From positions 1 through 64,000 of the forward strand of contig NZ_JAKGBZ010000012.1 in NCBI RefSeq assembly GCF_021556475.1: a stretch of 64,000 bases of DNA. Reading direction: 5' to 3'. Shown here one piece after another: positions 27,824-36,501 of the stretch. Each line of letters starts with the position of its first letter. Position 1 is the stretch's first letter. This DNA comes from Acidiphilium iwatense. GTDB lineage: Bacteria; Pseudomonadota; Alphaproteobacteria; Acetobacterales; Acetobacteraceae. The position numbers were made by a program, and so were the translations under genes. Under the pieces are notes generated by a model. It was not told the DNA's origin, ran no database searches, and worked only from the letters and a program-made list of their open reading frames with translations.

Positions 27824-27860
27824 GGGTGACGGCTCACTCCTGGCTCGGCCGCTCATATCC

Positions 27861-27914
27861 CGATTCGGACGTTCGTCAGTATTGGCAAAGGCATCCTACG
27901 AACGTCCGAAATCG
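27861..27914. promoter_or_regulatory. Perfect inverted repeat in the divergent LacI promoter
   Basis: CGGACGTTCGT (27866-27876) and ACGAACGTCCG (27898-27908) match over 11 of 11 bp around a 21-bp spacer, and the symmetry continues outwards with CGATT and AATCG. It lies 43 bp upstream of the LacI start. Two half-sites two helical turns apart suggest a regulator site rather than a terminator. Confidence 0.5.
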
Positions 27915-27940
27915 ATCAGGACACTAGCAAGCATTTGATT

Positions 27941-28015
27941 CTAGTGTGGTTTATGGTTCTGAAATTCTAAAACCGCTCCCTCAGGCACGTCGGAATTTCA
28001 AAACCACCACACTAG
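27941..28015. mobile_element. 75-bp inverted-repeat element, probable IS-end remnant or MITE
   Basis: Left arm CTAGTGTGGT...GGTTCTGAAATTC and right arm, read in reverse, CTAGTGTGGTGGTTTTGAAATTC agree at 22 of 23 positions apart from a 4-nt insertion (TTAT) in the left arm. Only 25 nt lie between them. Both tips are CTAG. A further half-copy, ACACTAG, is at 27921-27927. It looks like both terminal repeats of an IS630-like element with no interior. Confidence 0.5.
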
Positions 28016-28154
28016 CCGGTTTTTTCAATGTCGCGCTTCGGAAGTATCGCGAATTTTCCTCCACCGCGCAAGATGGTAGCGCTGTCAAACCCTGGTTGCG
28101 CGACCACAGACCTGCCTCTATACCGGCCGCACCAATCGCCCGGAGGACACCATC

Positions 28155-32668: not shown

Positions 32669-33088
32669 TCAATCCAATCTTGGTTCGATTCGTCGCGGCG
32701 GTGGCGGCGATGAAGACCGGGACGGCGGCGCCGAAGGCCGCGACCGGCCCAGAGGCTCGCGCGCAGCCTCCGGCGCGGGCGGAATCGCCAGCGGCGGCTG
32801 GGTATCCGGCTCGCGCGCATAGCGCGGTGCCGACGCGCGCGGCAGCGGGTCGTAGGGCGATTCGTCGATCGCAACGCCGCGCAGCGGTTCGGGCAGGCGC
32901 ATCGTGAGAATGCGCAACTCCTCCTGCACCGCGTCCAACTGCGTCTCGATCGCCTCGAGCCGCGATTTCACTCCGAATACCGAGAACGGCATCGCCAGCA
33001 GCGCCAGCGCATAGAGCAGCGCGACCAGAAGCAGCACGAGGCCGAGCCACGCGGGCATCCAATCCGGCAGGGAGAACGGCAAGGTCAT
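32669..33088 (-). CDS. Single-pass membrane protein with Pro-rich tail, unknown
   Basis: 139 aa. One N-terminal transmembrane segment (LGLVLLLVALLYALALLAMP), a short coiled coil (KSRLEAIETQLDAVQEELRIL) and a disordered Pro/Arg/Ser-rich C-terminus. The layout resembles small scaffold or envelope proteins, but no family is recognised. The open frame continues upstream to 33247, but ATG 33088 gives a natural membrane anchor. Divergent from the fhs gene. Confidence 0.6.
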   Translation of the reverse strand: MTLPFSLPDWMPAWLGLVLLLVALLYALALLAMPFSVFGVKSRLEAIETQLDAVQEELRILTMRLPEPLRGVAIDESPYDPLPRASAPRYAREPDTQPPLAIPPAPEAAREPLGRSRPSAPPSRSSSPPPPRRIEPRLD

Positions 33089-33182
33089 GGACCTATCTAC
33101 CGGCCCCGGCACCCGGCAGGCAAGCCTTGCGTTTCGACTGCCGCAGTGGACATAACATGCCGGCCAAACGGGGGGAGTGTTC

Positions 33183-34853
33183 ATGGCTTCCGATCTCGAC
33201 ATCGCGCGCGCCGCGAAACTGCGTCCCATCGCGGAGATCGCCGCCACCGCCGGTATCCCCCCTGGCTCGCTGATCCCCTATGGCCACCACAAGGGTAAGA
33301 TCGATTTCCGCTTCATCGAGAGCCTGCGCGACCGGCCGGACGGTGCGCTTGTCCTGGTCGCCGGCATCAGCCCCACCCCGGCCGGCGAAGGCAAGACCAC
33401 CACCACGATCGGCCTGGCCGACGCGCTGCGCGAAGCGGGCGCGCGCACGATGATCGCGCTGCGCGAACCGAGCCTCGGCCCCTGTTTCGGCCAGAAGGGC
33501 GGCGCCACCGGCGGCGGCCATGCGCAGGTCGCGCCGATGGACGAGATCAACCTGCATTTCACCGGGGACTTCCACGCGATCACCAGTGCGAACAACCTGC
33601 TCGGCGCGATGCTCGACAATCATCTCTACTGGGGCAATGCACTGGGGATCGACCCGCGCCGCATCCAGCATCGCCGGTCGATCGACATCAACGACCGCAG
33701 CCTGCGCGACGCGGTGATCGGCCTCGGCGGCGTCGCGCACGGCATCCCGCGCGAGGACGGGTTCGACATCACCGTCGCCTCGGAAGTCATGGCGATTTTC
33801 TGCCTCGCGCGCGACCTGGATGATCTTCAGGCGCGGCTCGCCCGCATGATCGTCGCCGAACGGCGGGATGGTTCCGCGATCACCCCTGCCGACCTCAATG
33901 CGGTGGGCGCGATGGCGGCCCTGCTGCGCGACGCGCTGCAGCCCAATCTGGTGCAGACCCTGGCCGGAACCCCCGCTCTGGTGCATGGCGGACCGTTCGC
34001 CAATATCGCTCATGGCTGCAACTCGGTGATGGCGACCAGGACGGCGCTGAAACTCGCCGATATCGTCATCACCGAAGCCGGATTCGGCGCCGATCTCGGC
34101 GGCGAGAAATTCCTCGACATCAAGTGCCGCCAGGCCGGTCTGGCGCCGTCCTGCGTGGTGGTGGTCGCGACCATCCGGGCGCTGAAAATGCATGGCGGCG
34201 TCGCCAAGGCGGATCTCGGGGCGGAAAACCCGCGCGCCGTCACCGCGGGGGCGGACAATCTGCGCCGCCATGTCGCGGCGATGCGCGCCTTCGGCCTGCC
34301 GGCGATCGTCGCGGTCAACGGTTTTCTCTCCGACACCGAAGCCGAGCGCGAAGCCCTGAATGAAGCCCTGGAACCGGATGAAATCGCGCCGATTTTCTGC
34401 ACCCATTGGGCCGATGGCGCGGACGGTGCCGACGGGCTGGCCGAAACCGTGCTCGCCACGATTGCGGCAAAATCCGCGCGATTCGCGCCGCTCTATCCCC
34501 ACACCATGCCGATTGCCGAAAAACTTCGCACCGTGGTCCGGCGCGCCTATGGCGGCGATGACATCGTGTTATCGCCCAAAGCGGCGAAACAGATCGCGCG
34601 CATCGAGCAGCGTGGTTTTTCTCATTTGCCGGTTTGCATAGCAAAAACCCAGTACAGCTTCACCGCCGACCCCAATTTGCGCGGCGCGCCCAGCGGTTTC
34701 ACCATCCCGATCCGCGATATCCGGCTTTCCGCCGGTGCCGGCTTCGTGGTGGCGCTGGCCGGCGACATTCTGACCATGCCCGGCCTGCCGCGCGTGCCCG
34801 CCGCCGAAGCCATCGGCCTCGACGCCGCGGGCGAGATCAGCGGGCTTTTCTAA
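33183..34853 (+). CDS. fhs: Formate-tetrahydrofolate ligase
   Basis: 556 aa, the family length. It makes 10-formyl-tetrahydrofolate from formate, THF and ATP in the cytoplasm. P-loop [11 protein letters not shown] at residues 65-75, [18 protein letters not shown] near 98-115, [11 protein letters not shown] near 126, and the C-terminal [16 protein letters not shown] block. ATG 33183 is chosen over GTG 33177 because GGAG lies five bases before it. It gives the cell a way to recycle formate, including that released by HutG. A perfect parS site lies 25 bp after the stop. Confidence 0.96.
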
Positions 34854-34877
34854 CATTAGGTTAGTAATACTGCCATA

Positions 34878-34893
34878 TGTTTCACGTGAAACA
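34878..34893. promoter_or_regulatory. parS: parS chromosome-partition site (ParB-binding)
   Basis: TGTTTCACGTGAAACA, a perfect 16-bp palindrome, is identical to the parS consensus bound by ParB proteins. It lies in the gap after fhs, over the end of the Hint-domain pseudogene. Such sites cluster near replication origins of chromosomes and some large plasmids; parA/parB and origin genes are not in the window. Confidence 0.85.
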
Positions 34894-35196
34894 AAGGACC
34901 GGTTTGATACCTTTTTTGACCGGATAGACCCGCTTGGCGGCGAGGGTGATTCGCACCGATTTGGAGCCGCGCAGCAGGCTGGCGGGAATGCGACCCTAGG
35001 TTTCACGGAATGTCTGCGCGAAATCGGGGTGGAGCAGCAGTGCCGCTCCGCCATTCTCGAAGGCGTCGCGATTGCCGGTTTCCAGATAGGATTCGGCCGG
35101 CGTGCCCTCGGCATAAAGGATCGCGTGGTGGGGGAGTTCGATGTGGTAATAGGTGACCGCATGGCGCTCGACCTGACGAATCGTTTTGACATCCGC
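34882..35196 (-). pseudogene. Hint-domain protein, C-terminal remnant with in-frame stop
   Basis: Sixty-six codons (VTYYHIELPHHAILYAEG, then ESYLETGNRDAFENGGAA split over the domain end) match the C-terminal part of the Hint-domain proteins common in Acetobacteraceae (HIELxxHxxLxAEGxxxESYLDTGNRxxFxNG). There is a stop (TAA) just upstream, so the N-terminus is lost. An in-frame TAG at 34996-34998 is followed by 38 further sensible codons (GRIPASLLRGSKSVRITLAA) to a TGA at 34882. The upstream truncation and the internal TAG both mark decay. Confidence 0.65.
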
Positions 35197-35199
35197 TTA

Positions 35200-35646
35200 C
35201 GAGATCTATGATTCCTTGCCTTGGAATACCCCTCTTGCGCCCCGGCTCACGATCCAGATTCCCATCATATGATTTTTGACGCGCTCCGGGAGAATTCCGC
35301 CACCCATACTCGCATCGGGTCTATTCACGGCAGTTCGTGCCTCATTATCCGATTCGCGGCGCGTCCGGGCCAATCGTGACGCCGTCATCCTCAATCCGAA
35401 GGAGCCGATTGCCCGTTCACGCATGGGAAATATCGGTAAAAATTCGAGAAAATCGGGAATCCGATTTGCCCCAAGGAAAGTGATGCGGTGATGGCGTGAG
35501 GCCCTGGCGGCCGGCTCGCCTGGCGGATTGGTTCTCACCCGAGATGAGTTGGTATATTATCGTCCCTTCACAAAGACCAATCATCCCGTGAGGCTCGTCG
35601 ATTACGCCAATCCCGCGAGACGAGAAACGGGTAACATGGGGGTATC
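35200..35646. other. Intergenic region without recognised gene
   Basis: Short open frames occur on both strands (for example 35206-35538 minus) but show no family features. The stretch probably holds the promoter of the nitrilase-like gene (GGGGGT lies just before its ATG) and decayed sequence continuing from the Hint remnant. Confidence 0.4.
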
Positions 35647-36459
35647 ATGACCGACATCGCGGTTTGCGTCGTACGGGTTCCCAAGGCCAGCTATCATGCC
35701 CAAGGCGGCTACAGCGCCGGGGATCTGGGCCAGCTTGTCGATCAAGCCAATAGCTTCATGGGCCGGCTGGTGAACCAGGCTCAGGGGCTGCACATGGTCG
35801 TCGCGCCCGAATATTTTTTCAGTCCGGTCGGGCCGATCGGCAGGCTGCGAAACCTGGGATCGCAGCCGATGACCAGAACCGAGAAGCATGACCTCTATGG
35901 CGATCTCGAGAAAGTCTCGCGCCGGGCCGGGAGCACCATCATCGTCGCCGGCTCGATTTTCTATCGCAAGGGCAATGGCGCCGGTGCGCGGGGGCTGAAT
36001 GTCTGCCCCGTGCTGCGGCGCGGCAAGATCATCTACAAATACTACAAGAAATTCGACGATGGCGTTCTCGGCAAGAACGATCCCGCCGCGACCTATGACC
36101 ACAAGGATACCAAGCCCTATTTCAAAACCGGAGGAGTCCGGTTCGGCATCGAAGTGTGCGGCGATCACACGAATAACGGGAACAACCTGGCATCCTGGCT
36201 TGCCACGAACCCGCGCACGATCGACGTCCAGTTGCTGATTTCCGACGGCAACGCGCCGTTCGCGCCGAACATGGCCGCGCGGGTCGGCGGCTATTTCATT
36301 CATTGCGATCTCAATGGAGAAGCGGACGCGGCGGTACGCGTCTATACCACCGCCGGCACCTGGCAACAGGCGAGCCGCACCACCGTCGATCCGCGCATCA
36401 TCGTCGATTCAGGGCTTCCGGGCGTGGAACTGCGTTTCTTTTTGCTGAGGAATGTCTGA
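35647..36459 (+). CDS. Carbon-nitrogen hydrolase (nitrilase superfamily) protein
   Basis: 270 aa. The Glu-Lys-Cys triad is present: Glu55 in VVAPEYFF, Lys134/135 in KYYKKFDDG and Cys171 in FGIEVCGDHTN. That identifies the nitrilase/cyanide hydratase/amidase superfamily. The EVCGDH motif and loops such as SRRAGSTIIVAGSIFYR differ from the common NIT or amidase branches, so the substrate is open. It stands alone, followed by a strong bidirectional terminator. Confidence 0.8.
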   Translation: MTDIAVCVVRVPKASYHAQGGYSAGDLGQLVDQANSFMGRLVNQAQGLHMVVAPEYFFSPVGPIGRLRNLGSQPMTRTEKHDLYGDLEKVSRRAGSTIIVAGSIFYRKGNGAGARGLNVCPVLRRGKIIYKYYKKFDDGVLGKNDPAATYDHKDTKPYFKTGGVRFGIEVCGDHTNNGNNLASWLATNPRTIDVQLLISDGNAPFAPNMAARVGGYFIHCDLNGEADAAVRVYTTAGTWQQASRTTVDPRIIVDSGLPGVELRFFLLRNV

Positions 36460-36471
36460 AGGAGGCAAACG

Positions 36472-36501
36472 AAAATCGCCGGCATTCATGCCGGCGATTT
36501 T
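36472..36501. terminator. Bidirectional intrinsic terminator
   Basis: A 13-bp perfect stem (AAAATCGCCGGCA / TGCCGGCGATTTT) with a TTCA loop has A-run and T-run ends on both sides. It lies 12 bp after the nitrilase-like stop and 21 bp beyond the end of the convergent pntB, serving both. Confidence 0.9.

What the first reader, a model, noticed from the sequence alone, without database searches (positions are those of the whole stretch)
34878..34893. Exact parS partition site next to fhs
TGTTTCACGTGAAACA is a perfect 16-bp palindrome, identical to the known ParB-binding consensus. Such a match is not expected by chance in GC-rich DNA. It suggests the window lies near the replication origin of a chromosome or chromid, although no parA/parB or dnaA is present.
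Basis: partly seen in the sequence, partly recalled or inferred. Interest (0 to 1): 0.75.

Follow-up and report, generated by a model that had tools for sequence, protein, structure and literature searches.

The report
Scattered parS sites in shared repeat
A bacterial chromosome-partition sequence normally kept near the replication origin occurs here in fourteen perfect copies spread over at least a quarter of the genome, each inside the same roughly 70-base element, a possible natural exception to a rule about chromosome segregation.

Summary
The 16-mer is where stated and is a perfect parS, but it does not by itself mark an origin. The host, a draft Acidiphilium genome (4.16 Mb), holds 14 exact copies on 11 contigs; 12 congeners hold 0-3. 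Packed as tightly as the contigs allow, the 14 span at least 987 kb, 24% of the assembly; genes beside them map widely over two relatives' long contigs, often by one side only. All 15 copies with at most one mismatch have AT-rich arms in fixed register, about 70 bp in all. Among 14 dispersed copies the pairwise difference is 0.9% in the core, 41-50% in the arms, 70-74% outside. Searches that could see changed cores found none in the host beyond the one-mismatch copy (partial sensitivity). Eight or nine of 13 non-coding copies lie between convergent genes. ParB keeps the parS-type residues R173 and G201. Best reading: dispersed composite ParB sites under selection in part of one genus. ParB binding is inferred and the role is a guess; spread as a small mobile repeat remains possible.

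The parts
34878..34893 (.). parS core TGTTTCACGTGAAACA, perfect 16-bp palindrome
   Evidence: exact, single in window; 14 exact in genome
34848..34877 (+). left (B-type) arm of the composite element; majority sequence over 15 copies AACTAAAAGTTAGTCATAATAACTGTCCTT; the window copy is diverged and contains the fhs stop codon
   Evidence: leave-one-out score of both arms of the window copy 34.7 bits (other orientation 11.6); alignable arm at the G003 fhs-linked site
34894..34916 (+). right (A-type) arm; majority sequence over 15 copies AAGGAACCAGACCGGACCTAATT
33177..34853 (+). fhs, formate-tetrahydrofolate ligase, 558 aa, reads toward the element; its stop codon lies inside the left arm
34882..35196 (-). 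3' remnant of a Hint-domain gene with an in-frame stop, reading toward the element; its frame ends at a TGA inside parS
   Evidence: PF13403 E 2.7e-9 for the 66-aa piece

Best explanation
The window holds one member of a dispersed family of composite ParB sites: a perfect parS core flanked on each side by a conserved 20-30 bp arm, about 70 bp in all, placed mostly in the short gaps between convergent genes. SHOWN by sequence: 14 exact cores, arms in register, a near-invariant core against variable arms, no copy with a strongly changed core found in the host, two of the dispersed sites present at matching places in other species, and one canonical ParB with parS-type specificity residues. INFERRED: the chromosomal ParB loads on each copy as on any parS and slides into neighbouring DNA, making many small ParB zones; the arms carry a second contact (an accessory DNA-binding protein, or help from AT-rich DNA shape). 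The likeliest use is chromosome organisation or ParB/SMC loading away from the centromere, the rsmG-parAB site staying the centromere. Copies arose by duplication of the ~70-bp unit and were kept because the core works.
For: 14 exact copies against 0 for the control. Arms in register in 15 of 15 host copies, leave-one-out scores 14.9 to 63.0 bits in the chosen orientation; random-window 99th percentile -20. Pairwise difference core 0.009, arms 0.41 and 0.50, outside 0.70 and 0.74, n = 14 dispersed copies including C57. A sequence model gave 32 matches in the host: both strands of the 15 known places and of one weak place, 21 bits. A pattern of arms with free core gave 9 places, 8 of them known copies (7 exact, C57), 1 unrelated, control 2; it recovers 8 of 15 known copies. 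An A-arm pattern gave 12 places, 8 of them known copies, control 6. Matching sites: fhs-linked in G003; beside the thiE-like gene in G003 and G007, not in G008. ParB: ParB_N, HTH_ParB, ParB_C, best solved relative Caulobacter ParB, R173 and G201 kept. The bases that would be the loop of an RNA hairpin are ACGT in 14 of 16 aligned copies and ACGC in two, which suits a DNA site.
Against: No binding data. In Caulobacter an extra parS cluster is tolerated mainly within ~500 kb of the native one, with a smaller zone near the terminus, and disfavoured mid-arm (PMC5815017, section 20), so 14 live sites would be unexpected. The arms could be relics of a small mobile element. The host is a draft, so true positions are unknown. 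Copies were first found by their core; the controls are partial (one search scored 120 of 382 first-look candidates; one search recovers 8 of 15). The core is not always exact: C57 and a G006 site share one changed base and L167 has two symmetric changes. Arms are not universal: the exact parS on G001 C90 scores -37.5, and paired rsmG-region copies in four congeners look armless.
Confidence: 0.62

Rival explanations
1. A MITE- or REP-like small mobile repeat whose body happens to contain parS, or that gains from carrying it as SGI1 does. Its ends are imperfect inverted repeats (AAAAGTTAGTC / GACCTAATTTT in copy C102a) and it settles at gene ends.
For: A shared ~70-bp unit at unrelated loci, imperfect end symmetry; mostly convergent placement; 14 exact parS in one species against 0-3 in 12 congeners. 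SGI1 precedent: PMC10954446 (abstract).
Against: A passenger core should decay with the arms; it does not, and decayed-core copies were not found in the host (partial). No target duplication seen by eye. In PdxA (C46) the host protein is only 4 residues longer than G008's at the site. The C102a element had no match in the plasmid collection and the left-arm-plus-core pattern none in viral contigs.
Confidence: 0.2
2. An ordinary but large origin-centred parS cluster; in this species all contigs with sites lie near the origin.
For: The minimum span, 24%, is only slightly over the 20% ori domain quoted in PMC7022226 (passages). Gene order in the genus is scrambled, so relatives' positions are weak evidence. 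fhs is 0.36-0.62 Mb from dnaA in three relatives.
Against: Genes beside the sites map to about 0.01, 0.23, 0.31, 0.54, 0.80, 1.58, 1.59, 1.81, 2.0, 3.0, 3.16, 3.2, 3.37, 3.5 and 3.58 Mb on the 3.75-Mb contig of G008, many by one side or only kilobases away, and three tested genes spread over 1.1 Mb of G011.
Confidence: 0.1
3. A bidirectional transcription terminator: the palindrome acts as an RNA hairpin between convergent genes.
For: Convergent placement and stop codons within or next to the arms; 5 of 8 folded copies have z below -2; 1 of 8 consensus pairs has a both-sided change, in one sequence; L167 keeps the palindrome through paired changes.
Against: No U-run directly follows the hairpin, the T-rich end being some 20 bases on; covariation term +0.08 and loop bases nearly as conserved as the stem; window copy z -0.42; the one Rfam match in window 33000-36500 is far below its cut-off and lies elsewhere.
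Confidence: 0.06

Closest known systems
Chromosomal parS of ParABS systems (Caulobacter, Bacillus, Pseudomonas)
   Same: Identical 16-bp sequence; a canonical ParA/ParB pair next to an rsmG that carries a parS in its coding sequence
   Different: Most known parS lie in the ori domain (PMC7022226, passages; PMC5815017, section 20), and I know of no shared flanking arms (recalled); here 14 perfect copies are dispersed and share arms
Dispersed parS and half-parS sites of Pseudomonas aeruginosa
   Same: ParB sites outside the origin region (PMC4368675, abstract; PMC7022226, passages)
   Different: There the six dispersed parS differ by more than one base from the palindrome, and others are half-sites; here they are perfect and in a common element
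Noc and its NBS sites (Bacillus subtilis)
   Same: A ParB-family protein with 16-bp palindromic sites (PMC7383237, passages; wide scatter of NBS recalled)
   Different: The canonical ParB keeps R173/G201 and the sites are parS, not NBS; the five other ParB_N proteins were not examined
SGI1 parS-like repeats
   Same: parS-like sites carried by a mobile unit that uses another replicon's ParABS (PMC10954446, abstract)
   Different: SGI1 is an integrative element with two such sites for a plasmid ParB; here a ~70-bp repeat with the chromosomal parS

Membership tests
chromosomal parS site | match to TGTTTCACGTGAAACA | tested here: met
   exact
chromosomal parS site | cognate ParB with parS-type specificity (R173, G201) in the genome | tested here: met
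   residue roles from PMC7383237 passages. Of Q162, G170, K171, S172, R173, N178, G201, R204 seven are kept; G170 is Ala
chromosomal parS site | bound by ParB in vivo | not testable with these tools
   needs ChIP-seq
chromosomal parS site | clustered in the origin domain (usual, not strictly defining) | tested here: inconclusive
   minimum span 987 kb if on one replicon; wide spread in relatives' gene order; host genome not closed
MITE / REP-like mobile repeat | terminal inverted repeats with target-site duplication | tested here: inconclusive
   ends imperfectly symmetric, no duplication seen by eye in the copies
MITE / REP-like mobile repeat | clean insertion relative to an empty site | tested here: inconclusive
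   the one dispersed site that aligns straight through, PdxA, is 4 codons longer than in G008, not ~70 bp; other sites could not be aligned across
intrinsic terminator | GC-rich hairpin directly followed by a U-run | tested here: not met
Noc/NBS | Noc-type specificity residues (Q173, K179, K184, R201) | tested here: not met
   canonical ParB has R, M, N, G at these places

The most novel reading that the evidence does not exclude
One clade of Acidiphilium uses its chromosomal ParB as a genome-wide organiser: composite sites (parS plus arms bound by a second, unidentified protein) set between convergent genes load ParB at many places round the chromosome, giving Noc-like or insulator-like zones without a Noc protein and against the rule that parS stays near the origin.
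Probability: 0.3. Interest if true: 0.82.

Novelty: new variant of a known kind. Interest (0 to 1): 0.6.

Why it matters
parS placement is thought to be tightly limited because ParB and SMC loaded far from the origin upset segregation. A free-living bacterium with 14 perfect, apparently selected parS copies over at least a quarter of its genome would be a natural test of that rule, and the conserved arms would point to an unknown partner or a new layer of ParB loading. It also warns that one exact parS in a contig does not show that the contig is near an origin.

Tried and rejected
Origin marking by GC skew: 100 sampled 20-kb stretches of G008 give a noisy cumulative skew, lowest near 3.0 Mb (at parAB) and highest near 1.3 Mb; too weak to use.

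Synteny breakpoints at the sites: 5 of 5 informative convergent site junctions were breaks against G008, but so were 14 of 18 other convergent junctions, so no claim.

A fourth species for the thiE-side site: G001 contig C81 carries an element there with core TATTTCACGTGAAATA, but that stretch is 95% identical to G007 over 1.6 kb while the G001 and window fhs proteins are 77% alike, so it may be transferred or mis-binned DNA; not counted.

RNA hairpin or terminator: see rivals. Known regulator motifs in the arms: looked at by eye only; several B arms read GTTA-N7-TAAC, not tested.

ParB residue numbering: a first try read the residues at wrong offsets (discarded); the numbers used come from the G170-K171-S172-R173 run named in PMC7383237 laid on the alignments.

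Literature: nine searches; their listings showed no report of dispersed parS-bearing repeats or of parS in Acidiphilium. Only open-licence papers are held; the 2007 parS survey (Livny et al.) is not.

Rows left out: model R1 was built from 16 elements (14 dispersed host copies, one of G003, one of G006); rsmG copies, the G003 fhs-linked site, G007 C34 and the armless G001 C90 site were not in it. Of the relatives' sites, 10 were scored for arms, 9 positive; the paired rsmG-region copies of G001, G004, G008, G010 and both G009 sites were not scored.

Full report
OBSERVATION. The palindrome is at window 34878-34893 and is unique in the window even at 3 mismatches; shuffled sequence gives 0.03 matches on average. 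The window lies on contig C24 of G000, a 4.16-Mb, 156-contig draft, 99.93% complete. A scan of the named species genomes with left arm plus core hit two records: Acidiphilium sp. PA, whose contig length equals that of G003 C34, and Acidiphilium sp. 37-60-79, whose match position fits G001 C81. G001 and G003 are listed as the host's genus, so the genus is Acidiphilium. The host itself may be left out of that collection.

COPY NUMBER. G000 has 14 exact copies on 11 contigs, one with 1 mismatch (C57) and one with 2 (C76); the control is 0. Twelve congeners have 0-3 exact copies; G001, G004, G008 and G010 have a pair 36 or 40 bp apart. The canonical parA-parB pair is on C146 next to rsmG, whose coding sequence holds one of the 14. 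DnaA is on C72, which has no exact copy.

ARMS. Aligned on the core, 15 of 15 copies (14 exact, the rsmG one included, and C57) share arms in fixed register from about -30 to +38; the majority sequence is AACTAAAAGTTAGTCATAATAACTGTCCTT - parS - AAGGAACCAGACCGGACCTAATT. Leave-one-out scores, against all other oriented sites including relatives, run from 14.9 to 63.0. Random windows, scored with a host-only matrix, have a 99th percentile of -20; their maximum, 73, is above most real copies, presumably because windows holding a copy were drawn from the same loci. Arms are 37% G+C in a window of 64%. Of 10 relatives' sites scored, 9 were positive; the exact parS on G001 C90 has no arms (-37.5). 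By eye, the rsmG copies of G000, G003, G006 and G007 have A-type arms on both sides, those of G011 and G012 on one, and the paired copies of G001, G004, G008 and G010 none.

SELECTION. Among the 14 dispersed host copies (13 exact and C57) the pairwise difference is 0.009 in the core, 0.27 in the four bases on each side, 0.41 and 0.50 in the arms, 0.70 and 0.74 outside. Because copies were first found by their core, three searches test for changed cores. A sequence-only model gave 32 matches in G000: both strands of the 15 known places and of one weak place on C92 (21 bits); 120 of 382 first-look candidates were scored. It did find an element with a two-mismatch core in G001 (47 bits; core read) and one more in G007 (38 bits, core not read). 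A pattern of arms with 16 free bases found 9 places at up to 3 mismatches: 8 known copies and one unrelated, control 2, so it recovers 8 of 15. An A-arm pattern found 12 places, 8 of them known copies, control 6.

POSITION. The 11 contigs sum to 1,256,992 bases, so the 14 sites span at least 987,129 bases, 23.7% of the assembly, if they are on one replicon. Against 100 sampled stretches of the 3.75-Mb contig of G008, genes near the sites map from 0.01 to 3.58 Mb, many by one side or some kilobases away; the window's own 20 kb gave only weak hits and fhs was placed by protein search. Gene order is scrambled: the two C80 sites, 64 kb apart in G000, map near 0.54 and 2.0 Mb, and the two sides of the C131 site near 0.31 and 2.47 Mb. 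In G011 the rsmG parS is at 3.49, dnaA 2.84, SecF (C131) 2.54, fhs 2.23 and the C102a neighbour 1.46 Mb on a 3.64-Mb contig.

GENE CONTEXT. With a home-made ORF caller, eight copies lie between convergent genes, 5-41 bp from the left stop and 12-111 bp from the right one (C73a, C73b, C79, C80a, C102a, C131, C135, C57); 12 of these 16 flanking genes were put to Pfam and all 12 matched. The window copy is a ninth if the Hint remnant is counted. Two I read as tandem (C80b, C102b), one divergent (C1), one unclear (C124), two are in coding sequence (rsmG, and PdxA on C46). The automatic pass labelled the window and C124 tandem and C80b convergent. Background, site junctions included: 52 of 257 junctions convergent; P of 8 or 9 of 13 is 0.0013 or 0.00018 by junction count, 0.017 or 0.0037 weighted by intergenic length. 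In PdxA the host protein is 4 residues longer than G008's at the site.

OTHER SPECIES. G003 has an exact parS 0.9 kb after its fhs stop, beyond an extra predicted gene, with alignable arms. Scans of about 4.7 kb around fhs in G001 and G004-G009 found no element. The thiE-side copy (C80b) has counterparts in G003 and G007 and none at that place in G008. In 27 genomes outside the genus the listed model hits reach at most 26 bits (list cut). The C102a element had no match in plasmids, the left-arm-plus-core pattern none in viral contigs.

PARB. The 292-aa protein has ParB_N, HTH_ParB and ParB_C and best matches Caulobacter ParB (6t1f, 7bm8). R173 and G201, described as absolutely conserved in ParB and changed in Noc (PMC7383237, passages), are both kept, as in the ten congeners aligned. 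G170 is Ala in the host. The other five ParB_N proteins (open frames 681-805 aa) were not studied.

VERDICT. It is one of a family of dispersed composite sites rather than an origin mark. ParB binding is likely from sequence; role and means of spread are open. Known parallels differ: P. aeruginosa has dispersed but degenerate parS (PMC4368675, abstract); S. coelicolor and L. innocua have 22 near the origin (PMC5815017, section 20).

Noticed in passing
window about 27858-28019; L024:2109-2269, L026:11863-12024, L031:9348-9510, L034:10578-10743: A second interspersed repeat of about 160 bp, 73-88% alike between copies; one copy overlaps the rsmG-parA gap of the host.
   Followed up: no
window 34882-35196, minus strand: Remnant of a Hint-domain (PF13403) gene with an in-frame stop; its frame ends inside parS.
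   Followed up: partly
window 35647-36456, plus strand: A 270-aa ORF with no Pfam match at E 0.001.
   Followed up: no
G000 C139, C112, C68, C86, C82: Five long ParB_N-domain proteins (open frames 681-805 aa) beside the canonical ParB, perhaps plasmid-borne.
   Followed up: no
G008:C6 and G011:C18: parAB lies about 0.74 and 0.65 Mb from dnaA in two long Acidiphilium contigs (wrap-round assumed for G008), unusual if dnaA marks the origin.
   Followed up: partly
G004 contigs C5, C33, C39, C47, C56: Five one-mismatch parS matches in a congener that the element model did not report at E 0.1, so apparently without arms.
   Followed up: no
   Followed up: no
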